DNA of 64,000 bases from Adhaeribacter radiodurans. GTDB lineage: Bacteria; Bacteroidota; Bacteroidia; Cytophagales; Hymenobacteraceae. The notes beneath the pieces were generated by a model. It was given only the letters and a program-made list of their open reading frames with translations, made no database searches and had not been told where the DNA came from. Location: positions 4,216,001-4,280,000 of the forward strand of contig NZ_CP055153.1 in assembly GCF_014075995.1 (NCBI RefSeq). The letters run 5' to 3'. Within the stretch, counting starts at the first letter, position 1. Every line of letters begins with the position of its first letter. Shown in pieces: positions 8,616 to 62,194 of the stretch. A program made the translations under genes and the position numbers.

Positions 8616-11600
8616 TTATTCTACTACTATTTTTGTTTGTTTTTGGTTAGAAGCACCGTTAGCTTTAATTATGTAAATGCCCGGTTTCATTACCTTGTTT
8701 AAAAATATTTCAGCAGAATTACTGCCTTTTTCATCCATCCTTACGGTTATAGCCTGATACAACTGCCCATAAGTATCAAACAAGCTGAGAGTTACCGGTT
8801 CCTGAGGCGCAAAATCAGCCAGGTTCAGGTAAATCTTTGATCCCGCCGATTTCGGGTTAGGGTAAACAGTAAGCACAGGTTCTTTATCGGTAAATTTCTT
8901 GTTAACCTTACTAACTTTATCTTGTATAGCCGTTGCTAAAGAATCCACATTGGTTGTATCGCTACCTTCGTACTGAATACCAAAGCCTATTAAATCTACT
9001 GAAACTGTCTGATCATTCTTCTTCTTCTTCGTGCTTGCTGCTTCCAGCTTGGCAGTTTTCCGGCCCTGGGAGGCTGGTATAAATACCACATTAAACGTAA
9101 CCGAACTGTTCTTGCGGATTTTTACCGGTTTGTTTGGCTTAGCATCAGGTTGGCCCAGCATCCGGAACTCCCCGGCATTTTCGCCAGTAATGCCTAAGTT
9201 TTTTAATTTAAGATTACCATGGCCGGTATTAGAAATTGTTACTGCATGCGGTGTTAATCTGGAATAATCCGGTAGGTCATCATCTTTGTCTTTGTCCTTA
9301 TCTTTATCCTTGTCTTTTTTTGCTTTTTTCGCCTTCGTACTATTTGTTTGGGATGCGGCGGATGAAGGTAAAGCCGTTTCGGTTACTCCCACAACTTCGG
9401 TAGCTGTAATTTGTTCAGGAAAAGCAGTAGCAAACCCTTCCTCATCCGAAATACTGCTCACGCGCAATAAGGTAATTTGAGCTGTTCGGTCCGGAATGTT
9501 GTTCCAGTTGAACTCAATTACGTACAGGTTACCAGTTTGCACGTCTTCCACAATGTCCAAGGGATTAATAAAGCCGGACATACCCACTAATCCTGCAGTA
9601 CCGGCTCCTGTGTAAGAGTTAGTTATATCATAAAGAGTTTCGCTGTTTCCTTTAACGAGTGAGCCCGGTTCTAATACAATAATATCGCCCCCGCCACTAA
9701 AACGGCAAACTAGTAGTTTACCTTTTAAAGCCCCGTTAAAAGCATTGCTCTTGTACTCCAAAGAACCATTGGGTGACCGGTTCAGGTCAAAGTTAAAGGC
9801 AGGTACGCGGTAGTTAGCATCGGCTCCTAAAGTACTAGGGTATTTGGCATTGTCGGCAAAGCCCCGGTTAGCAACGTACTCACCGCGCAAAGGATTGGGG
9901 TGTCCGAAATAACCAACTCCTTTTAATGGATTGATGCGGAACAACCAGTCGTTTTGCACTTGCACCCCGGAGGTAGCTGCCACGACCGGACCATTGTAGA
10001 AAGTACCGTTTGGCCGCCGGGTACCCGCCACTGATAGCGGCGTGTTGCCCCCGGCAGCTGAGCCATTGGCAGCGGCGTAAAGTTGGCCGTTGCTGTGCCA
10101 CACCAGATCGTAGGCGTTCCGGATACCGGAAGCATAAATGATTAAGGGCGCATTGCTGGCATACGGATTATAAGTGTTATCAGAAAACCGGAGCTGGCTG
10201 GTGGTAGCGGCATTAATTAAACTTTGGTTAGCAGTAGTTTTAGCATCTAAAGTAGTACTGCCCAATTTTACTAAATCTAAGCGCAGCACTGCTCCCGACA
10301 ATAAACTTTCAGACCGTTGCCAGGTACCATCATAAGCCCCCATGGAACTGTTACTTCCTTGGCAAAAATAAAGCGCACCATCCGGGCCAAAGGCCAAACT
10401 ATTTACTAAATGATCTTTAGCCGAGCGAGGCAGGTTGGTTACCAGTAATTGTTCCGTAGCCAGGTTGGTGCCGGTTAATTTAGAAATTTTACCGTCAAAT
10501 TCAGGTGCACCCGACAAGCCAGATGAACAATGCGAAACATAAGCAATTAAATTGCTGGCGGTAGATTTCGGATCAAAAACCAACCCGATTGCCGACCGGT
10601 TTCCGTATCTCCCCGGTAAAGTACCAATAGTTGTTTGGAAGGTAAGGCTGCCATTCAGGTGGTTAATTGCAAAGCGTTCGATATTGCCGTCCAGCCGTAA
10701 GGCATAAAACTTATCATCGGGACCGATTACTAAAGAAGAATACTTTTTACCTTGGGTTCCGGCAATGGGCACTTTAGTAAATTCTACCAACAATGGTTCG
10801 GTTGGCTCAATGGCAGCACCGGTAGTAAAAGTAGCCGTATACGGAATAAAAGCAGCCCCACTATAAGATTTAACGCCCTCCGTAACCATAAATTTATACG
10901 TAGTATTTCCTCCTAAAGCAAAAGTAGGCGAAAAACTAATGGCATCTCCGCCGCCGGTACCTTGTACTACTCCTGCTACCTGGGTGGTAGAAGTACCTAC
11001 CACTTTTAACAATTTTACGGTGCTGCTGGTGATGGTACTGTTATCTACGCCGCCCGGATACCCGGTCACGATGGGTACAAACAGGTTATTGGCCGCAATG
11101 CTAGAAGTATTTACGCTTACATTAGTAGCCCCATTGGCGGGCGTGGAAGATATTACATAAGGGCGAGGAGCGGTTACTTCTAACCGGATATTAACGCTAC
11201 CCGCCGTAAAACCAGCCGCCGACGCTTGTATGGTGGCCTGGTAAGTACCAACGGCTAAGTTGGCAGCCGCGGCATAGTTAAAAGATACATTAGGCTCCGC
11301 TCCGGTATGGCTGGAGTTAAAGCTTAACCAGTTACTAACGGCGGGGCTGTAGACTGCCGATACGTTATATTGCACATCGGTGCGGTTGCTCGAATTACTT
11401 AAATCTAAAGAAAACGTTTTGTTCGCGGTAGAGGCACCTTTTTCAATGGTTAATAATTGCTCATTTACCGACCAAAACGTATACGGCCCACTATTAACCG
11501 GCACTATCCGGGCAGAGTTCATTTTCGTATTAAAACCACCATCGGCATCAATGGTTAAGTTACCATCGCTTACGGTTACCCGCACCGTAGCCGATTTAAA

Positions 11601-12581
11601 CCGGGTACTGGCCCCGGCAGCCCCCGAAGGCACAAAGCCATTTATTGCCTGGCGATTTTCTACATTTAACGCGTGCTTTTCCGGAATAGAATAAACGCCA
11701 CCATCTCCCGCCGAAACGGTTACGTCGTAAATACCATTGGCAACTTTTGCCTCCCAGTAGCCTTCGACTTTAGTACCGTCAAAAGTACCCGGAATATCAT
11801 CGGCTTGCATGTGAATTAAAGTAGCTTGCAGCACATTAATATCCGGGTTGAGAATTGAATTGCGATTGCGGCCGTTTCCAGGAGTAGTACCACCCACCGA
11901 AAGATCCAGTAAGCTGTTATTTGCGCGGTTTCTCCAGCCGTAGGTTAAATTACTGCCCTGATTAGCACCCGTGCGTAACCCGTATGGCTGACCGTAATCC
12001 CGCACCCAACCAGAGGTTGGTACGGTAGCCGGATCCTGAAAATTAACTTGAATAGTGGGTTGGATAACAGAATTAGTAAAAGTAAAAGTAATTGTTTTGG
12101 CAGTACCTGCGGTTCCTCCCCCACTAGCGGCTGAGTAAGGCGTTGCTGTTAACGAGTACTTTCCGAGTGTCGGTACCCAGGCGGCATAGTTGCCATTTGT
12201 ATCGCCGAATACAGCGTAAGGCGCACCGGTTTCGGTTCTGGTGGCGGATTGAGCGCCGCTTAAAACTATTTTTACGCTACCTACAGTAGCAGGAGTAGTA
12301 TTTACCCGAATATTTAAATTTTTAGTTGGTAAGGTGTTTAAGTTGATGGTGCTACCGGTATTGATCGTTTGGATCACTGTTTCGTTATCCGCATTCATTA
12401 AAGTGAAACTCGATACTACCTCTCCCGCCAGGGTTTTAACAGCAGAAGATTTTACCGACGCAGCACACAAAGGAGTTGAAATAACAGACGAGCTTAAAAC
12501 AAAGCTCATCAGCAGAAGCATTAATTGTTTAATGTTTAAGGCAGGAACAACAGGAAGCGGGAGGGTAAATTCTTTCTTCAT
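8616..12581 (-). CDS. Giant T9SS-secreted protein, paralogue of the 4224-7802 gene with an extra N-terminal module
   Basis: The start MKKEFTLPLP at 12581 gives 1321 residues; a longer frame to 12614 adds 11 residues ahead of an otherwise normal signal peptide. The architecture repeats that of the downstream paralogue: malectin-like, beta-sandwich, Big_5-like, propeller, Lys-Asp tract (about 1082-1100, much shorter), Hydin-like and T9SS tail (from LTVYPNPKS). Unlike the paralogue it carries an additional beta-rich module at residues 57-168 (SFTLMNADNETVIQ ... TFTF), which recurs in the two lyases at 14-17.6 kb. It is probably a surface sugar-binding or oxidising protein. The two genes are arranged head to tail, each with its own terminator, consistent with a tandem duplication followed by divergence. 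Confidence 0.88.
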   Translation of the reverse strand: MKKEFTLPLPVVPALNIKQLMLLLMSFVLSSSVISTPLCAASVKSSAVKTLAGEVVSSFTLMNADNETVIQTINTGSTINLNTLPTKNLNIRVNTTPATVGSVKIVLSGAQSATRTETGAPYAVFGDTNGNYAAWVPTLGKYSLTATPYSAASGGGTAGTAKTITFTFTNSVIQPTIQVNFQDPATVPTSGWVRDYGQPYGLRTGANQGSNLTYGWRNRANNSLLDLSVGGTTPGNGRNRNSILNPDINVLQATLIHMQADDIPGTFDGTKVEGYWEAKVANGIYDVTVSAGDGGVYSIPEKHALNVENRQAINGFVPSGAAGASTRFKSATVRVTVSDGNLTIDADGGFNTKMNSARIVPVNSGPYTFWSVNEQLLTIEKGASTANKTFSLDLSNSSNRTDVQYNVSAVYSPAVSNWLSFNSSHTGAEPNVSFNYAAAANLAVGTYQATIQASAAGFTAGSVNIRLEVTAPRPYVISSTPANGATNVSVNTSSIAANNLFVPIVTGYPGGVDNSTITSSTVKLLKVVGTSTTQVAGVVQGTGGGDAISFSPTFALGGNTTYKFMVTEGVKSYSGAAFIPYTATFTTGAAIEPTEPLLVEFTKVPIAGTQGKKYSSLVIGPDDKFYALRLDGNIERFAINHLNGSLTFQTTIGTLPGRYGNRSAIGLVFDPKSTASNLIAYVSHCSSGLSGAPEFDGKISKLTGTNLATEQLLVTNLPRSAKDHLVNSLAFGPDGALYFCQGSNSSMGAYDGTWQRSESLLSGAVLRLDLVKLGSTTLDAKTTANQSLINAATTSQLRFSDNTYNPYASNAPLIIYASGIRNAYDLVWHSNGQLYAAANGSAAGGNTPLSVAGTRRPNGTFYNGPVVAATSGVQVQNDWLFRINPLKGVGYFGHPNPLRGEYVANRGFADNAKYPSTLGADANYRVPAFNFDLNRSPNGSLEYKSNAFNGALKGKLLVCRFSGGGDIIVLEPGSLVKGNSETLYDITNSYTGAGTAGLVGMSGFINPLDIVEDVQTGNLYVIEFNWNNIPDRTAQITLLRVSSISDEEGFATAFPEQITATEVVGVTETALPSSAASQTNSTKAKKAKKDKDKDKDKDKDDDLPDYSRLTPHAVTISNTGHGNLKLKNLGITGENAGEFRMLGQPDAKPNKPVKIRKNSSVTFNVVFIPASQGRKTAKLEAASTKKKKNDQTVSVDLIGFGIQYEGSDTTNVDSLATAIQDKVSKVNKKFTDKEPVLTVYPNPKSAGSKIYLNLADFAPQEPVTLSLFDTYGQLYQAITVRMDEKGSNSAEIFLNKVMKPGIYIIKANGASNQKQTKIVVE
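9279..9335 (-). repeat. Short Lys-Asp repeat tract in the second T9SS paralogue
   Basis: The same AARGAY hexamer-type repeat as at 4884-5003, here under half as long, sits at the same position between the propeller and the Hydin-like domain. The length difference between paralogues shows expansion or contraction of the tract. Confidence 0.9.
12078..12413 (-). other. Shared beta-rich module (copy in T9SS protein)
   Basis: Residues 57-168 of the gene at 8616-12581 form a self-contained module. Its signature blocks are LMNADNETVIQ, LPTKNLNI, GSVKIVLSGA, APYAVFGDTNG and KYSLTATPYS. The same blocks in the same order occur in both lyase genes (15001-15336 and 16994-17329). I do not recognise a named family for it; it looks like an Ig-like beta-sandwich. 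Confidence 0.8.
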
Positions 12582-53414: not shown

Positions 53415-56400
53415 ATGTATAACCCTGTAGCAACTTACCGCCTACAATTTCATAAAGAATTTACTTTCGAGGATTTTGCAACTATTATTCCGTACCTGCA
53501 AAAACTGGGAGTAAGCACTATTTACGCTTCGCCAATTTTAGAAGCCACTCCCGGAAGTACCCACGGGTACGACGGCGTTAACCCCCACCGGGTTAATCCT
53601 GAAATCGGGAACGAAGATCAACTGAAAGATTTAAGTAAAAAATTAAAAGAACAAGGCATTGGCTGGTTGCAGGATATTGTACCCAACCACATGGCTTTTC
53701 ACCCGCATAACACTTGGTTGATGGATGTACTGGAAAAAGGTCCCCAGTCGGCCTACGCCAAGTTTTTTGACGTAACGCAAACCAGCGACACTATGAAAGG
53801 TCGGATAATGGTGCCTTTTTTAGGTTCCCCGCTGGAAGATGTTATAAAAAACAAAGAATTAAAAGTTGCCTACCACGAAGAGCAGCAACGCCTGGTTTTA
53901 CAATACTACGATAGCGCTTACCCGTTGGGCTTCCATTCCTACGAAACTATTCTGGGATTGGGAGAGCCTTCGCAAGCCATTCAGCAAATATTGGCTACCC
54001 TGGAGCAATTGCATCAAACCGAAGAAGCAACTTCTTATACCGCTGCATTTACCGATTTTCAGCAACAGTTGGCTGGTTTAATGAAAAATGAAGCAGTACG
54101 TTCTTCCGTAGAAAAATCGTTGGCGGAAATAAATAACAGCCCGGAAAAGCTTACCCAAATTACCGATGAGCAGGCTTATCGTTTGTGCCATTGGCAGGAA
54201 ACCGACCAACAAATTAACTACCGGCGCTTTTTTACCGTTAACGGCCTTATTTGTTTAAATATTCAGGACTCCGAAGTTTTTGATACTTATCATCAGTACA
54301 TTCAGGCATTGCGCGAAGAAGGCATTTTCCAGGGCTTACGCATCGACCACATCGACGGCTTATACGATCCTACCGGCTATTTAGAACAACTCCGGAAATC
54401 TACCGGGGAAGAAACCTACCTGATTGTTGAAAAAATACTCGAGCCCGGCGAAGACATTCCGGAGAATTGGCCTATTCAGGGAAATACCGGTTACGACTTT
54501 CTATCGTTGGTAAATAACCTGTTTACTCAAAAAAGCAGCGAACAAGCTTTTACCCATTTTTACCACCAATTAGTAGGCGAAGGCGCCGAAGTGCAGGAAC
54601 AAATTCACGAAAAGAAAGCCTATATCCTGAAAGAACACTTGGGCGGCGAACTGGAGAATTTATACCAGCTTTTCCTGGATTTAAACTTACTGGAAGAAAA
54701 TCAGCTTCATTCGCTGGAGCCAAACGTTTTAAAAGAGACCATTGGTGAGTTCCTGGTACAATGCCCCATTTACCGGTTCTACGGCAATCAGTTTCCGTTA
54801 ACCGAGACTGAAACCGCAGAAGTAACAGAAGTTTTGGACCGCATCCGGAATAGTAAACCTGATTTGGCTGCGGCAGCCGATATGTTGGATGAAATATTTC
54901 TGAAAAAACCTTTAGAAGCCGACGGAGAATATAACCTGCGGGTGCAAAAGTTCTACCAGCGCTGGATGCAGTTTAGCGGCCCATTAATGGCCAAAGGCGT
55001 GGAAGATACGCTTATGTACACCTACAACCGTTTTGCGGGCCACAACGAAGTTGGCGACTCGCCGGAGGCTTTTGGTCATTCGCCGGCAGAATTCCACGAC
55101 CGCATGTTAGATCGCCAGAAAAAATGGCCTTTAAGTATTAACGCTACTTCTACCCACGATACCAAACGGGGCGAAGATGTACGGGCGCGCTTAAACGTGC
55201 TCACCGATTTGCCGGAAGAATGGCTGGAAAAAGTACAGGAATGGCAGCAACTCACCGCCGAATCAAAAAAAGTAAATAAACCCGATAGTAACGACGAATA
55301 TTTTATCTATCAGACCTTAGTAGGAGCTTATCCGTTTCCCGGCGAAGACGAAGCTGGTTTTGGCTCCCGTTTAGAAGAATATTTACAGAAAGCCTTACGC
55401 GAAGCCAAAATAAACTCCAACTGGACCACCCCGAACGAAGAATACGAACAAGCGGCCAAGACTTTCGCGACTAATTTGTTAGATAAAAGTACGCCGTTCT
55501 GGCAAAGCTTCGAACCCTTTTATAAGAAAGTAGTTGATTTAGGAATTGTTAATTCTTTAGCCCAGGTAGTATTAAAATTCACTTGTCCTGGTGTACCAGA
55601 TACTTACCAAGGCACCGAATTATGGGATTTAAGCCTGGTAGACCCGGATAACCGTAGGGCGGTAAATTACGAACAGCGCCAAAGCTACCTCGAAGAATTA
55701 GATGCCTATGATTTAAATAAGCAGGAAGCCCTTTGGGCCGATTTATGGCAAAACCGAAACGATGCCCGCATAAAACTCTGGCTTACCCGTAATTTATTAC
55801 TCGAACGCCGGAATAATGCCGATCTTTTTGCGAAGGGTAAGTATATACTGTTAGAAGTAGAGGGCACCTATAAAGATAATGTTTTTGCCTTTGCCCGCAA
55901 GCACTTGCGTACCTGGTACGTGGTGGCTGTGCCGCTGCATGTTGGAGTACTTTGTCAGGAACAAGGAGTTGAAGTTTCTGATATTGATTGGAAAGACACG
56001 AAAATAGTTTTACCAAAAGACGCCCCGGCCGATTGGCAGAACATGTTCCTCCGGACATCGGGTAAATATGCGCACGAGCTTTCTGCTAAAGATTTATTTA
56101 GTGTACTACCGGTGGCTTTGTTAAAGCTGCAGGCCGTAAACGAAAGAGGCGCCGGTATTTTAATGCATATTACCTCCTTACCTTCGCCGTTTGGCATTGG
56201 CGATTTAGGTCCGGAAGCACGGAACTTTGCCAAATTTTTACACCGCAGCAATCAAAAATACTGGCAATTGCTACCGCTTAACCCCATCGAGCAAGGGCAG
56301 GGCTACTCGCCTTATTCATCTATTTCCAGCCGGGCCGGCAATCCTCTGCTTATTAGTCCTGAGTTGCTGGTAAAGGATGGTTTATTGCCCAATGTGGATC

Positions 56401-57638
56401 TGCAACCATACTATTTACCGCAAACTGGTTCGGTGGATTTCCAGGAAGCCCAACGGGTAAAAGACGAAATTTTAGAACTAGCCTGGCAAAATTTTAAAGC
56501 CGGCGACTTTATTACGGTGCAGCAGCAGTTTCTGGATTATTGCCTCACCGAAGCGGCCTGGCTCGACGATTTTGCCTTATACATGGTACTCAAAAGCCAA
56601 AATGGTGGTTCGGCCTGGTTCCAGTGGCCCGAAGAATTTAAACAACGCGAATTACAAGCCTTAGCCGACTTAACCGAACAAAATCAGGAAACACTGGATA
56701 AAATAAAATGGGTGCAGTTTATGTTTGCAAAACAATGGAAACGCCTGCGTACCTATTGCAATAACCGGGGTATCCAGCTTTTCGGCGACATGCCGTTTTA
56801 CATTTCCTACGACTCGGTGGATGTGTGGAGTAATCCTGAGATTTTTGCTATTGACGAAGAAGGTAATATGACGGGAGTAGCCGGAGTGCCACCCGATGCT
56901 TTCAGCGATGATGGCCAGTTGTGGGGCATGCCTGTGTTTAAATGGGATGCATTGAAAGAACGCGACTACGATTGGTGGGTAGGTCGTTTGCGGAAGAACA
57001 TAGAGTTGTACGATATTGTGCGTTTAGACCACTTTAGGGCTTTCGCCGATTACTGGGAAGTTCCTGCTGGCGATACTACGGCCCGTAACGGGGAATGGAA
57101 AACCGGCCCCGGCGCTGATTTCTATACCTTCATGGAAAAAGAACTGGGCAGTCTGCCATTTGTTGCCGAAGATTTAGGCGAGATAAACGACTTAGTATTA
57201 AAACTACGCGACGATTTTAACTTGCCGGGCATGAAAATTCTGCAGTTCGCTTTCGGCGACGAAATGCCGCAGAACGATTACATTCCGCATAACTACGCCC
57301 GCAACTTTATTGCCTACACCGGCACCCACGACAACAATACCGTTTTAGGTTGGTACCGCCAGGAAGGTCATAAATACCACGATCAGATAGAACACTACGT
57401 AGGCCGCGACTTAACTGAAGAAGATATGTATTGGGTTATGAGCCGCCTGGCTTATGCGTCGGTAGCAAAAACCGCCATATTACCTATGCAAGATGTGCTC
57501 GGCATTGATGAACAAGGCCGCATGAACACGCCCGGCCAGGGAGAAGGCAATTGGGGCTGGCGCCTCTTACCCGACCAGGTAACTCCCGAAGCCGAAAGTT
57601 TACTAAAAGAATGGACCTGGTTGTATAACCGGGGATAA
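53415..57638 (+). CDS. Fused malto-oligosyltrehalose synthase / 4-alpha-glucanotransferase (TreY-MalQ)
   Basis: 1407 residues, far longer than either family alone. Residues 1 to about 905 are a complete TreY: ATYRLQFHKEFTFEDF, IVPNHMAFHPHNTW (about 88), GLRIDHIDGLYDPTGY (nucleophile Asp, about 309-312) and ATSTHDTKRGEDVRARL (about 577). Residues about 908-1407 are a complete MalQ (GH77): GILMHITSLPSPFGIGDLG, RLDHFRAFADYW (nucleophile Asp, about 1203), FVAEDLGEIND (about 1250) and YTGTHDNNTVLGWY (about 1302). The joint follows the TreY C-terminal domain directly with little linker. TreY makes the trehalose linkage at the reducing end; MalQ would disproportionate short leftover maltodextrins back into substrates. 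Both active sites look intact. Ends at a bidirectional terminator. Confidence 0.93.
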   Translation: MYNPVATYRLQFHKEFTFEDFATIIPYLQKLGVSTIYASPILEATPGSTHGYDGVNPHRVNPEIGNEDQLKDLSKKLKEQGIGWLQDIVPNHMAFHPHNTWLMDVLEKGPQSAYAKFFDVTQTSDTMKGRIMVPFLGSPLEDVIKNKELKVAYHEEQQRLVLQYYDSAYPLGFHSYETILGLGEPSQAIQQILATLEQLHQTEEATSYTAAFTDFQQQLAGLMKNEAVRSSVEKSLAEINNSPEKLTQITDEQAYRLCHWQETDQQINYRRFFTVNGLICLNIQDSEVFDTYHQYIQALREEGIFQGLRIDHIDGLYDPTGYLEQLRKSTGEETYLIVEKILEPGEDIPENWPIQGNTGYDFLSLVNNLFTQKSSEQAFTHFYHQLVGEGAEVQEQIHEKKAYILKEHLGGELENLYQLFLDLNLLEENQLHSLEPNVLKETIGEFLVQCPIYRFYGNQFPLTETETAEVTEVLDRIRNSKPDLAAAADMLDEIFLKKPLEADGEYNLRVQKFYQRWMQFSGPLMAKGVEDTLMYTYNRFAGHNEVGDSPEAFGHSPAEFHDRMLDRQKKWPLSINATSTHDTKRGEDVRARLNVLTDLPEEWLEKVQEWQQLTAESKKVNKPDSNDEYFIYQTLVGAYPFPGEDEAGFGSRLEEYLQKALREAKINSNWTTPNEEYEQAAKTFATNLLDKSTPFWQSFEPFYKKVVDLGIVNSLAQVVLKFTCPGVPDTYQGTELWDLSLVDPDNRRAVNYEQRQSYLEELDAYDLNKQEALWADLWQNRNDARIKLWLTRNLLLERRNNADLFAKGKYILLEVEGTYKDNVFAFARKHLRTWYVVAVPLHVGVLCQEQGVEVSDIDWKDTKIVLPKDAPADWQNMFLRTSGKYAHELSAKDLFSVLPVALLKLQAVNERGAGILMHITSLPSPFGIGDLGPEARNFAKFLHRSNQKYWQLLPLNPIEQGQGYSPYSSISSRAGNPLLISPELLVKDGLLPNVDLQPYYLPQTGSVDFQEAQRVKDEILELAWQNFKAGDFITVQQQFLDYCLTEAAWLDDFALYMVLKSQNGGSAWFQWPEEFKQRELQALADLTEQNQETLDKIKWVQFMFAKQWKRLRTYCNNRGIQLFGDMPFYISYDSVDVWSNPEIFAIDEEGNMTGVAGVPPDAFSDDGQLWGMPVFKWDALKERDYDWWVGRLRKNIELYDIVRLDHFRAFADYWEVPAGDTTARNGEWKTGPGADFYTFMEKELGSLPFVAEDLGEINDLVLKLRDDFNLPGMKILQFAFGDEMPQNDYIPHNYARNFIAYTGTHDNNTVLGWYRQEGHKYHDQIEHYVGRDLTEEDMYWVMSRLAYASVAKTAILPMQDVLGIDEQGRMNTPGQGEGNWGWRLLPDQVTPEAESLLKEWTWLYNRG

Positions 57639-57721: not shown

Positions 57722-60700
57722 TTACTCACTTTTACTCTCTTTATTCGCCAGAAATGAGGGAATTAGTAAACTAAAGCGGGGTAATATACTCAGGAAGGTA
57801 GAAACTGCCGTAAGTACAGCAATAATATTTGCCCAACTGGTTTTCTGGGTAAAAAAGAAAAATAATATAGCGCCAATCAATACTAAAAGAAGCGGTGTTT
57901 TGTATACCGCCCAACTACTACCCTGCGTTGAATTCTTCTCAAGGCGCAAAGCATCCTCCGGATTCACGGCTACCAGTATAAAGTTTTTAAAGCTCTCGTT
58001 CATAATTTTTAATAACCCATCTTTATCAACTATTAATAATCCTTTGCCTAGTAACGACGATAATACCTGTACATTCTTCGAATTTACTAAACCATCCTGG
58101 GCCATATCAAACAAAAAATATTGCTCTTCGGCCGTACAGGAATGCCATAAACTCCAGTAATAAAACTGAGCTAAATTTTGCAATCTTGAAACAACGTCGG
58201 CTCTTTGCAGAGTAATGGTTGAGTAATTTTCGTGCACGAAATTTTGCATTACTTTTATATAATGCTTCTCTAAGTATTCCGCGGCGGCGCATTCCTTTTC
58301 TATCAACCCTAACAAATCAGCTTTAGAATTTACTAAATATTCCGGGGCAATTTTATAATTCCACAACAATTTATGCTCAGCCGGAAGGAATGATACAGGG
58401 TGTTGCAGCGGTTGGTACATTTTGGTGTACGTATTCAGGAGCACCAGCAATTGTTGCAGCAAATGCGTGTACTCCGTATCAACCAAAACACGGCCGCTTT
58501 CCAGTTGTTTCTCTTTTAAGCTATCCTCCCAAACGGATGGATGCAGCGTAGATTGCAGAATTATTTTAGCATCCGGAAATGTAAGCAATGCCCGTAATAT
58601 ATAAATTTTAAGCTCCAGCGAAGTTTTAGAAAACAATTCGTAATCAAAGTTCTGAATTAACAGAAATACAACCGGAGGCCGCTTCTTGAACTTTAAGGAA
58701 TAGTAAATTCTCTCTTTCTTTAACAGAGAAGTAAGTACTTTTAGAGTAGTGTTAAACTTATTTTTAGCTGTAATTAGGTCATCGGCATTGCCGCTTGTAT
58801 CCAGATTAAATTCTTTAAACAGGCAATTATAACCTTTATTTTCTTCAGAAATTATCTCTTTTATGTCCGGCGAATGCGGCAAGGAAATCAGGAAAATTTT
58901 GTTTTTATCAGTTACCTGCAACAAACTTAAATCCCAGTGCTTTGTTTGCGCATTGGCGACCAAATCTATATTAAACAACCGCTTAATTACAAAAGAAATT
59001 AACGTATAAAACAAAACCAGTAAAACGCTTATATCTATCCAAAAAATCCAACCCGATTTACTAAATAAGGAAGGAACCTTGTACTTAGGCATATAAGAAG
59101 AAAGCCAGATATGGTTCTCCTGATTCTGATAACTGAACTGCAAATAATGGCGATTGATTGGTTCCCAACGGTCAGTATAGCTGGTTTTCAGAAAATAGCC
59201 ATTGGCTAACACATTCTGAAAAATAGGTTGCAAAACAGGAATAAAATTATTTAATAAATCCGTTTCTCCGTTTAACTGTGGCCATGCGAGCCCTACTATA
59301 TTACTTACTTGTACTTTTTGATTAGGCGGTTGTGGAGGTTCAGGCGTTAAAGCAATAATTGGCGTAAACTTGTTTGATTTAGTAAAAATATAAGCGATCG
59401 GATAGTAAATGCGTTTAGATACAACCGAATTAGTAGAATAAGTAGTTTGGTTAAAAAAACGAGTATAAGGATAACCCATTTTGGTTAGAATTTTAACAGA
59501 ATCGGGCACTACCGATTTACGCAAAGAATCTAGCACAGTAGCTTTATTTCCCCGCAATGAGTAAAATACCTTCATGTATTCGGGGCAATAAGGTTTTGTT
59601 TGTTTTCGAAAAACTACTGCCGGAGGAATATAGCCTAAAATCTCGGTAATGGCTGTATATCCGTAATTGTAATTTTTTACGTTTTCTAAATCTTGCGCTA
59701 AGTAGGCTTGATTGTATCTTACCGCTAACTCGGCCTCGTAATTGTAGGCTACCCGAAACAGCATAAAAGCAGGTAACCCACTTATTAGGATAGACCAAAA
59801 AACCAGCATGGCCACATAAATGCGGCAGTACTTTTGAGCTTCCGGTAAAATATATTTAATTACTTTTAACTGACAACAGGAATGAAGTAGTTTGTTTATT
59901 TTGGGATTTTGATCAATAGTTAAAAAAAGTAAAATTACCAGAATCTGAAATAGTCCTGCCAGAAGGAATACACTAAAACTAACCAGCAGTCCAATAACAT
60001 TAAAGCCAACTAAAATGAGCCACGACTTACGTAAGGTTACCCGGAAAGAAGTGCAGTTTAAAGTACTGTAAATAAAAACAAAAGTATAAAGAGCGGCATA
60101 AACATGAATAAAGTAAACGCTTATCTGATAACGGATATTCGCAATTAACAATATCAGGGAAATTATAAAAACCAGCGCAACTGTTATTTTAAAATAATAG
60201 AAACTAATATCTCGTTTGGGCCATAACCATTTAAACGAAATATCAAATAAACCTTCGTTCAGATAAATAATAAAGGCCGTTAAAATAGCAATAGAAACCA
60301 GGTACAGCGAAAGAAACATGGCCGTGAGTACCACCAAATTCAAGTTAAAAGCGCGGTGGTACGCATCATTCACAAATGTTACCAGAAAAAAAGGCAGATC
60401 CTTAATAGGCGACACAAATAACTGCTGCTGGTTGCCTTGGTAATTACTCGCAAAATGAACGGGAATCTGCCCGTAAAGTGCCGCTTTTAAGTAAGGATTA
60501 TTGCCGGTTTCTTCCAGCAGATTTTCATTTAAATTAAGATTCTGATTTTGGTGGAATAATACTTTCCCGGATTTATCTATCAGGCAAAAGCCATAACCCG
60601 GCGGCAATAAAGTTTTATATAGCGAGGATAACTTGGTAGCGAGCGCTACTACCCGGATTTGATTTTCTGTATCGGTAGTGAGATTACTTTTTGTGCTCAG

Positions 60701-62194
60701 GACGGCGTATTTCTCTCCATCGGTGGTAGAGGTAATAGATTCTAAAACAAATTTAGGCGTTTCCGTACCTAAAGCCCAACCCCCATTTGCCTGAATTACT
60801 CTAAAATAAGGGCGGTAACCCACATAAGCGCGGGTATTATTTTGATTTAGGGGTGCCCAGGAATTAGTCATCATCCCATTTCTGTCAGACCAGAACACGC
60901 GGTAAAATGCCGGAAAATAATTTTCTGATGTTTTTTTTATTCGGTTATTCTGGTCAACGGATAACCAAAATGGGTTAGGTTTAAACCTGGAATCTTTAGC
61001 AGAGGCAGCCTCTTCAAAAACCTTAATTTGCGCTAAAAGGAATTTTATCTCTTTCTTAAGATTGTGTTGTAATTCTTTCGAAAATTGTTCTAACCGTTCT
61101 TTTTCGGTAAACCGGTCTACTCCATAATAAGAATAGCAATCAAAAATCAACAATACAACAAGAGCCACTCCGAGCACCAGCGAGAGGAAAGACAGGAGAA
61201 CATCTTGCCGGTACAAACGCTCTTGTTTGTTCATGAGGGCCAATTTCAGAAATGGGAAACCCATAAAAACCAGCACTACCATTAAAGCTGCCAGGCTTAC
61301 GATGTGAATAGGAATAGCCCGGCTTTCTGCTTCGTACTTTTCGGCTGGCATGGCGCCATACAAAATCCATTTTTCGTCAAAACCTACCCGTTGCGTAAGA
61401 GTAAATAACTTATAAGGCACCCCGGCAATACTGGCCTGCGCCGGACCATTTTCCGTGGATTTATTAGCTAAAACCCCCAGAGTATCTAATGGTATTAAAT
61501 CAGCACTGTGCCCGGAATTATAAACAAGGGTATAAGGAGGAACCATCCGTTTTTTTTCATCTTCTTTGGTTCCGGATTGCCTTAATACAATCAGGTAATC
61601 AAATGCATCTCCGCGCATCAGCGAGTTCAGCAAAGAATCTACCGGTACTTTAATATAATATTCATTATTCCTGATCTTCCCGCTTAACTTTCCTTTTCTT
61701 GAAATTTCATCCTCTAATAAGCGAAAGGCCCGCCCGCTTATTTTGGTTTTAAAATGCAAATAGAGCTGGCCATTTTCTTCCTGGTAATCGATTTTTTTGG
61801 TTGTATTTGGTTCTTCGGCTTTTTGCCCGGAGTCTTTAAAGTGAAACCGCAAACCAAATTTTCCGGTTAAAGAATCCCTTCGGTCGGCTGTTCTTAGAGC
61901 AGTCAATAGTGTTTCATTACTAAGGCTATCTGCTTCTTCAAACAGGTTCATATCAGATACTGTTTTTAAAATAGCATTTGATACAAAACTACTGCCCACG
62001 TATAAATTGTAGTTTCTGACCGAAGTACTCATATTTTCGCCTATTCGCTGAAGTACCCGGTAGCTGCGGGCATTTATGCGCTTTTCATTTTCCGGTACAT
62101 AGCCAAATACATAAATTAAAGTAAAGGCAATTATACCCAAGCTGGTAAGCAGTAATACCGTAAAGTGGCGCGTTTGTCGGCTAATAGCGGGCAT
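57722..62194 (-). CDS. Very large multi-pass membrane protein with Cache-like sensor regions and a degenerate P-loop-like cytosolic domain
   Basis: 1490 residues. Hydrophobic segments: 13-32, 297-318, 333-352, 618-645, 667-687, 692-711, 724-760, 792-814, 1049-1071, 1434-1450 and 1456-1478. Three large exposed regions lie between them: 33-295; 365-612, which looks like a Cache sensor (FWSDRNGMMTNSW, GYRPYFRVI, GYGFCLIDKSGKVLFHQNQN); and 815-1045. Region 1080-1430 should be cytosolic. Strand FLISLPHSPDIKEII (1101-1115) sits where an NTPase P-loop would be but lacks GxxxxGKS. VVFLLIQNFDYELF (1175-1188) resembles Walker B, and AKIILQSTLHPSVW (1209-1222) a sensor-1 strand. A winged-helix-like end follows (about 1340-1405). 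No kinase, cyclase or methyl-accepting domain is visible. Function unknown; a signalling scaffold is likely. Confidence 0.75.
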   Translation of the reverse strand: MPAISRQTRHFTVLLLTSLGIIAFTLIYVFGYVPENEKRINARSYRVLQRIGENMSTSVRNYNLYVGSSFVSNAILKTVSDMNLFEEADSLSNETLLTALRTADRRDSLTGKFGLRFHFKDSGQKAEEPNTTKKIDYQEENGQLYLHFKTKISGRAFRLLEDEISRKGKLSGKIRNNEYYIKVPVDSLLNSLMRGDAFDYLIVLRQSGTKEDEKKRMVPPYTLVYNSGHSADLIPLDTLGVLANKSTENGPAQASIAGVPYKLFTLTQRVGFDEKWILYGAMPAEKYEAESRAIPIHIVSLAALMVVLVFMGFPFLKLALMNKQERLYRQDVLLSFLSLVLGVALVVLLIFDCYSYYGVDRFTEKERLEQFSKELQHNLKKEIKFLLAQIKVFEEAASAKDSRFKPNPFWLSVDQNNRIKKTSENYFPAFYRVFWSDRNGMMTNSWAPLNQNNTRAYVGYRPYFRVIQANGGWALGTETPKFVLESITSTTDGEKYAVLSTKSNLTTDTENQIRVVALATKLSSLYKTLLPPGYGFCLIDKSGKVLFHQNQNLNLNENLLEETGNNPYLKAALYGQIPVHFASNYQGNQQQLFVSPIKDLPFFLVTFVNDAYHRAFNLNLVVLTAMFLSLYLVSIAILTAFIIYLNEGLFDISFKWLWPKRDISFYYFKITVALVFIISLILLIANIRYQISVYFIHVYAALYTFVFIYSTLNCTSFRVTLRKSWLILVGFNVIGLLVSFSVFLLAGLFQILVILLFLTIDQNPKINKLLHSCCQLKVIKYILPEAQKYCRIYVAMLVFWSILISGLPAFMLFRVAYNYEAELAVRYNQAYLAQDLENVKNYNYGYTAITEILGYIPPAVVFRKQTKPYCPEYMKVFYSLRGNKATVLDSLRKSVVPDSVKILTKMGYPYTRFFNQTTYSTNSVVSKRIYYPIAYIFTKSNKFTPIIALTPEPPQPPNQKVQVSNIVGLAWPQLNGETDLLNNFIPVLQPIFQNVLANGYFLKTSYTDRWEPINRHYLQFSYQNQENHIWLSSYMPKYKVPSLFSKSGWIFWIDISVLLVLFYTLISFVIKRLFNIDLVANAQTKHWDLSLLQVTDKNKIFLISLPHSPDIKEIISEENKGYNCLFKEFNLDTSGNADDLITAKNKFNTTLKVLTSLLKKERIYYSLKFKKRPPVVFLLIQNFDYELFSKTSLELKIYILRALLTFPDAKIILQSTLHPSVWEDSLKEKQLESGRVLVDTEYTHLLQQLLVLLNTYTKMYQPLQHPVSFLPAEHKLLWNYKIAPEYLVNSKADLLGLIEKECAAAEYLEKHYIKVMQNFVHENYSTITLQRADVVSRLQNLAQFYYWSLWHSCTAEEQYFLFDMAQDGLVNSKNVQVLSSLLGKGLLIVDKDGLLKIMNESFKNFILVAVNPEDALRLEKNSTQGSSWAVYKTPLLLVLIGAILFFFFTQKTSWANIIAVLTAVSTFLSILPRFSLLIPSFLANKESKSE

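What the first reader, a model, noticed from the sequence alone, without database searches (positions are those of the whole stretch)
57722..62194. 1490-residue sensor-like protein with a ruined P-loop ATPase-like domain
The protein joins three extracytoplasmic regions, one Cache-like, with about eleven membrane segments and a cytosolic part in which P-loop, Walker-B-like and sensor-1-like strands can be traced though the GKS/T loop is lost. It ends with a winged-helix-like segment and two further membrane segments. No known output domain is present. This is the strongest candidate here for an undescribed signalling system: ligand sensing coupled to a pseudo-ATPase scaffold.
Basis: inference. 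Interest (0 to 1): 0.75.

Follow-up and report, generated by a model that had tools for sequence, protein, structure and literature searches.

The report
Membrane sensor with broken ATPase core
A large, apparently undescribed membrane receptor of Bacteroidota joins an outward-facing small-molecule sensor to a worn-out, NLR-like ATPase core inside the cell, and in a good part of its relatives the gene sits beside genes for enzymes that attack membranes, cell walls or proteins, so it may be a trigger for self-destructive or conflict responses.

Summary

The P-loop erosion is graded: 24 of 56 aligned rows keep GxxxxGK, 1 of 56 keeps GKS, and the window has lost both. The winged helix is conserved better than the ATPase core.

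New here: close same-strand neighbours are enriched for patatin and Tle1-like phospholipases, peptidoglycan hydrolases and subtilase-caspase proteins (18 of 43, against 17 of 788 other gene pairs in the same loci). This adjacency changed at least 12 times on the family tree. But 46 of 68 loci, the window among them, have no such gene within five genes.

Best reading: a transmembrane pseudo-STAND receptor gating separately encoded effectors. Ligand and control step are inferred.

The parts
57722..62194 (-). 1490-aa membrane receptor gene (whole ORF)
   Evidence: full-length homologues
62096..62158 (-). TM helix 1 (residues 13-33)
   Evidence: hydropathy; helix in model
61310..62095 (-). outside region 1 (residues 34-295), alpha/beta, PAS/Cache-like order of elements; fold not tested by itself
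   Evidence: secondary structure of model; pLDDT under 50 at 106-135 and 137-139
61136..61306 (-). TM helices 2 and 3 with short cytosolic loop (residues 297-353)
60350..61135 (-). dCache domain (residues 354-615)
59750..60349 (-). TM bundle, TM4-TM9 (residues 616-815); six helices if the stretch 732-754 is counted as two
59060..59749 (-). outside region 3 (residues 816-1045), no fold assigned
   Evidence: topology; 17-20% identity to four Hymenobacter-type relatives
58979..59059 (-). TM10 (residues 1046-1072)
58400..58927 (-). degenerate STAND/AAA+-type P-loop domain (residues 1090-1265)
   Evidence: family motifs
58856..58900 (-). position of the lost Walker A loop (residues 1099-1113)
   Evidence: alignment with GxxxxGK-bearing relatives
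58640..58672 (-). Walker-B-like strand (residues 1175-1185); NHFE in 23 of 56 rows, DxF/L[DE] in 7 of 56
58538..58567 (-). sensor-1-like strand (residues 1210-1219); SxxHP in 37 of 56 rows
57920..58342 (-). winged-helix domain (residues 1285-1425)
57755..57919 (-). two C-terminal TM helices (residues 1426-1480)

Best explanation
It is an inner-membrane receptor. The dCache domain, and perhaps outside region 1, sense a small molecule or envelope state outside the cytoplasm. The signal passes through the TM bundle to a cytosolic STAND-like module, a P-loop domain plus winged helix, held to the membrane on both sides. The P-loop domain has lost most or all catalysis, so the module would work as a conformational or assembly platform and not as an ATP-driven switch. 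It carries no recognised enzyme of its own. In part of the relatives the likely output is a separately encoded, cytosolic-looking enzyme in the adjacent gene: patatin or Tle1-like phospholipase, peptidoglycan hydrolase, or subtilase-caspase-hydrolase. Receptor activation would release or recruit these enzymes to damage the cell's own envelope or proteins, as in conflict or abortive systems. Shown: gene, topology, predicted folds, graded motif loss, recurrent gene adjacency. Inferred: ligand binding, coupling, activation of partners, self-damage. For the window's copy a partner in trans is assumed; none was found.
Against: 46 of 68 loci have no such enzyme gene within five genes, including the window (L022) and the same-genus copy L017. 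A Hymenobacter partner patatin has no match in the window's genome, in a search without positive control. The labels come from seeds chosen in these same neighbourhoods, and the loci are not independent. Two loci sit in clusters with GMC oxidoreductase and acetoacetate-decarboxylase genes that look metabolic. Foldseek TM-scores of the cytosolic model are low (0.21-0.30 by query length for the 18 matches under E 0.001). The same-genus copy in G003 is split into two frames, so the gene may be dispensable in this lineage. No experiment.
Confidence: 0.5

Rival explanations
1. A nutrient or lipid sensor that regulates lipid turnover: the neighbouring hydrolases and oxidoreductases are metabolic enzymes for lipids, and the protein adjusts them to supply.
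For: GMC oxidoreductase, acetoacetate-decarboxylase-like and patatin genes cluster with two members; dCache domains commonly bind metabolites (several of the best matches are amino-acid chemoreceptors).
Against: The partners also include peptidoglycan hydrolases, phage-type lysozyme, subtilase-caspase fusions and a papain-type peptidase, which are not lipid metabolism; most partners lack obvious export signals (29 of 32, crude test).
Confidence: 0.17
2. An adaptor or guard for exported effectors: the neighbours are cargo of a contractile injection system and the receptor holds or times them.
For: Tle1-like lipase, patatin, amidase and lysozyme without signal peptides resemble injected cargo (recalled); an eCIS_core protein lies beside L057/L129; Phage_sheath matches in 5 of 10 tested genomes, 2 over cut-off.
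Against: VipB 0 of 10 genomes (the control rang in 1 of 14, E. coli, so other T6SS types may be missed). 5 of 10 genomes have no sheath match, among them G125, G389 and G361, whose loci have adjacent enzymes (G361 a haem peroxidase).
Confidence: 0.13
3. A structural or transport membrane protein in which the P-loop fold is a relic; neighbouring enzymes are incidental.
For: Large TM bundle, GxxxxGK lost in 32 of 56 rows, 46 of 68 loci without enzyme neighbours.
Against: Adjacency enriched and recurrent, with unrelated enzyme families in the same slot; a sensory-type dCache domain.
Confidence: 0.12
4. In the window's lineage the gene is an orphan on the way out, whatever relatives do.
For: 3 of 8 genus genomes carry it, the window's own included; one of these is split; no partner gene nearby; P-loop lost.
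Against: The window ORF is intact over 1490 codons, and it keeps 65% identity in dCache and 54% in TM4-9 with its nearest relative L002.
Confidence: 0.1

Closest known systems
iSTAND (inactive STAND) proteins of MoxR-vWA ternary conflict systems (Kaur et al. 2020, PMC7159879; passages and section 20 read)
   Same: Inactive STAND-type domain, linked to peptidase effectors and, in a subset of systems, to the membrane; [quoted passage not shown]
   Different: Here the domain sits in a 12-TM receptor with a dCache domain. MoxR and vWA genes were not among the neighbour families shown, but 23 of 48 and 134 of 159 families were not shown.
Plant NLR resistosomes (RPP1, WRR4A) and other STAND NTPases
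   Different: Those bind ATP/ADP and carry C-terminal repeat sensors (recalled); here Walker A is lost and the sensor is an extracytoplasmic dCache.
[not shown]
   Same: dCache ligand-binding domain between two TM helices.
   Different: No kinase, methyl-accepting or cyclase domain over cut-off in the window protein; Pfam dCache_1 is under cut-off in the relatives where it appears.
Phospholipase effectors in PADLOC (PDLC00758; CapV of CBASS, link recalled)
   Same: Two of three adjacent patatins tested match these effector models.
   Different: No search for a cyclase gene was made; none is among the neighbour families shown. The proposed trigger is a membrane receptor.

Membership tests
STAND NTPase | P-loop core of ASCE/AAA+ type | tested here: met
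   [not shown]
STAND NTPase | winged helix following the P-loop domain | tested here: met
   RPP1 alignment spans model 26-363, covering both domains; conserved WH block
STAND NTPase | intact Walker A GxxxxGK[ST] | tested here: not met
   window has lost it; 1 of 56 rows keeps it
STAND NTPase | Walker B acidic pair | tested here: not met
   window reads QNFD; DxF/L[DE] in 7 of 56 rows, NHFE in 23 of 56
STAND NTPase | recognised by a Pfam STAND model over cut-off | tested here: not met
   window none; nSTAND1 15.5 bits against 27.1 in L099
dCache sensor domain | double-Cache fold between two TM helices | tested here: met
dCache sensor domain | Pfam dCache_1 over cut-off | tested here: not met
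   no hit for the window; 21 bits against 45 in L107
dCache sensor domain | binds a ligand | not testable with these tools
   needs purified domain
iSTAND MoxR-vWA ternary system | MoxR and vWA genes in the operon | tested here: inconclusive
   not among the 25 of 48 neighbour families shown
Contractile-injection cargo island | sheath genes in the genomes that hold an enzyme-receptor pair | tested here: inconclusive
   VipB 0 of 10 with a weak control; Phage_sheath 5 of 10, 2 over cut-off

The most novel reading that the evidence does not exclude
A bacterial transmembrane counterpart of an NLR: a dCache receptor senses an extracellular small molecule and, through an ATP-independent pseudo-STAND/winged-helix platform, fires a programmed-lysis cassette made of a cytosolic phospholipase plus an endolysin-like peptidoglycan hydrolase, sometimes with a conserved multi-TM protein (GAPFWFDLLNK motif) as a third part. 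It would tie death of one cell directly to an outside signal instead of an intracellular phage cue.
Probability: 0.25. Interest if true: 0.85.

Novelty: new variant of a known kind. Interest (0 to 1): 0.6.

Why it matters
STAND/NLR-type switches are generally thought to need nucleotide binding and to sense cues inside the cell (recalled). This family puts the same fold behind an outward-facing small-molecule sensor and tolerates loss of the nucleotide site in many members. It offers a ready test of whether NLR-like platforms can signal without ATP. It also names a receptor candidate for orphan cytosolic phospholipases, peptidoglycan hydrolases and caspase-like proteins of Bacteroidota.

Tried and rejected
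Sequence-only look-ups of the window protein gave nothing: Pfam, NCBIfam and PADLOC no family over cut-off, PDB by sequence none up to E 1, genome contigs with the single protein 0 relatives among 14 matching stretches. Profile against PDB sequences: NSF at E 0.63-0.68 behind myosin at 0.015 and others, not used as evidence; the profile of residues 1-640 hit one Cache protein at E 0.0011.

Weak Pfam hits to RseC/MucC, DUF4767 and NorB were rejected as below cut-off. In the phylum sample 7 of the 14 matching genomes had only short weak matches (E 1e-5 to 5e-4) and were dropped; the other 7, the window's own included, were kept. A general link with T6SS or sheath genes was not found, but the tests are weak. 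Association with response regulators (cluster c2, at +1 in 5 loci) was set aside: none shows at +1 in the same-strand list as far as printed (cut). My first neighbour label set counted a DUF5675 gene (unknown function, taken as endolysin-like from recall) and a haem peroxidase as lytic: 20 of 43 against 18 of 788, 17 of 62 tree rows, 13 changes, 23 of 68 loci. Without them: 18 of 43 against 17 of 788, 16 of 62, 12 changes, 22 of 68; the report uses the stricter set. Seven divergent members were left out of A6 and eight of A7, and one half each of the split G003 gene was added as its own row. The tree is a quick one with several long branches, so single rows are placed unsurely. VIA lists other AAA+ proteins at Z within 1 of the NLR match, so the structure search does not by itself choose STAND over AAA+.

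Literature: five searches. None of the titles and abstract openings listed (12-15 per search, out of 421, 21, 159, 244 and 110 papers) is about this family. Only PMC7159879 was opened (passages; section 20 whole); other papers were seen as search listings only. Absence in print is therefore weakly supported.
Full report
What is there. The minus-strand ORF 57722-62194 encodes 1490 residues from an ATG start. The flanking genes are ordinary: a fused amylase-type/4-alpha-glucanotransferase gene converging on it and an SMP-30/gluconolactonase gene diverging from it. The gene therefore appears to stand alone.

Family. Counting the window's own genome each time, homologues were found in 3 of 8 genus genomes, 7 of 150 family genomes, 18 of 291 order genomes and 14 of 395 phylum genomes, of which 7 are long convincing matches and 7 short weak ones that I dropped. 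A scan of species genomes returned 47 named loci, among them Dyadobacter, Mucilaginibacter, Pedobacter, Hymenobacter, Taibaiella, Hufsiella, Pinibacter, Maribellus, Draconibacterium and one Ignavibacteriae MAG. Of 27 family proteins compared all against all, L053 (Microscillaceae) and several others match every one.

Fate of the P-loop. In 56 aligned rows, 24 keep GxxxxGK. Most of these read G-x-P-G-S/A-G-K followed by L or M in place of S/T; one row, L094, reads GVPIVGKS and also has an Asp-bearing Walker B strand. Of seven divergent members outside that alignment, the five inspected show no GxxxxGK. The window reads LISLPHSPDIKE there. Against four Hymenobacter-type relatives the P-loop domain is 12-19% identical, the dCache 25-29% and the winged helix 30-40%; against the two same-genus relatives it is 40-41%, 44-65% and 46-49%. 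So the nucleotide site decays while the winged helix is held. The sensor-1-like strand ends in S-x-x-H-P in 37 of 56 rows.

Neighbours. After dropping seven duplicate loci, 68 loci were examined. Proteins annotated by Pfam near members include Patatin, T6SS_Tle1-like, DUF900 and DUF7379 hydrolases, Amidase_2 and CHAP with PG_binding, phage lysozyme, papain-type peptidase, subtilase-caspase fusions, animal haem peroxidase, GMC oxidoreductase and ADC. Other neighbours scanned had no Pfam match or ordinary ones. By homology to the enzyme seeds, 22 of 68 loci have a phospholipase/hydrolase, peptidoglycan hydrolase or subtilase-caspase gene within five genes; with a DUF5675 gene and a haem peroxidase also counted it is 23 of 68, by position 15 of 65 at -1, 5 of 68 at +1, 0 of 57 at -5 and 0 of 62 at +5. 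Among close same-strand neighbours (under 150 bp), 18 of 43 are of the strict kind, in 17 loci, against 17 of 788 other close same-strand gene pairs in the same loci. The seeds came from these loci, which biases this test, and related loci are not independent. The unbiased Pfam tally gives Patatin 11 of 43 and Tle1-like 3 of 43. In 102 same-strand genes at positions 4-5 neither appears among the 25 of 159 families shown, a list that ends at two members, so at most 2 of 102 each; Fisher p for Patatin is 2.7e-5 at that limit. PG_binding_1 (3 of 102) and Amidase_2 (2 of 102) do appear in the control, probably because the enzyme clusters reach that far. On a 62-row tree 16 rows have such a neighbour and at least 12 changes are needed, so the pairing arose or was lost repeatedly, with unrelated enzymes in the same slot. 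29 of 32 same-strand enzyme genes lack a strong N-terminal hydrophobic stretch by a crude measure. Two of three tested patatins match PADLOC phospholipase effector models.

Against. 46 of 68 loci have no such gene nearby, including the window and its same-genus relative G003, whose copy is split into two frames. The window's genome gave no match to a Hymenobacter partner patatin, in a search without a positive control. Two clusters look metabolic.

Mechanism. Shown: the parts, their predicted folds and topology, loss of the nucleotide site, and recurrent linkage to enzymes. Inferred: an outside ligand changes the dCache domain; the TM bundle moves the cytosolic module; the winged-helix platform releases or recruits a cytosolic enzyme that damages membrane, wall or proteins. 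For the window the partner is unknown.

Comparison. Inactive STAND proteins are already known from MoxR-vWA ternary systems, a subset of which is predicted to act near the membrane (PMC7159879, section 20), and these also use caspase-like effectors. The present family differs in its 12-TM, dCache receptor build and in its neighbours. The window protein fails the catalytic-motif tests for a STAND NTPase while meeting the fold tests, so it may work like a STAND scaffold without being an active one. I rate it a new variant of a known kind.

Noticed in passing
window 53415-57638 (+): One ORF of 1407 aa fuses an N-terminal amylase-type (maltooligosyl-trehalose-synthase-like, recalled) part to a C-terminal GH77 4-alpha-glucanotransferase.
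   Followed up: partly
L017:7954-10920 and 10980-12260: The same-genus copy of the receptor gene (G003) is split into two ORFs in different frames; described only.
   Followed up: partly
L113:3519-4745, L056:4269-5522, L099:5927-7168, L122:6563-7744, L057:924-2150, L133:15340-16401: A multi-TM protein family (c4), without Pfam match in the four members scanned and with a near-invariant GAPFWFDLLNK motif, lies within five genes of the receptor in 10 of 68 loci.
   Followed up: partly
L057:10112-13573 (= L129): A protein with an eCIS_core domain lies next to the receptor gene in Dyadobacter psychrophilus; that genome also has a Phage_sheath match over cut-off.
   Followed up: no
L104:13994-19747 and L137:4301-9829: Proteins of 1917 and 1842 aa join subtilase, caspase and a DUF7379 domain and abut the receptor gene in two Dyadobacter strains.
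   Followed up: no
L018, L019 upstream: In two Hymenobacter-type loci a CdaA-like gene and a DHPS-like gene (names recalled from sequence) lie upstream of the receptor gene.
   Followed up: no
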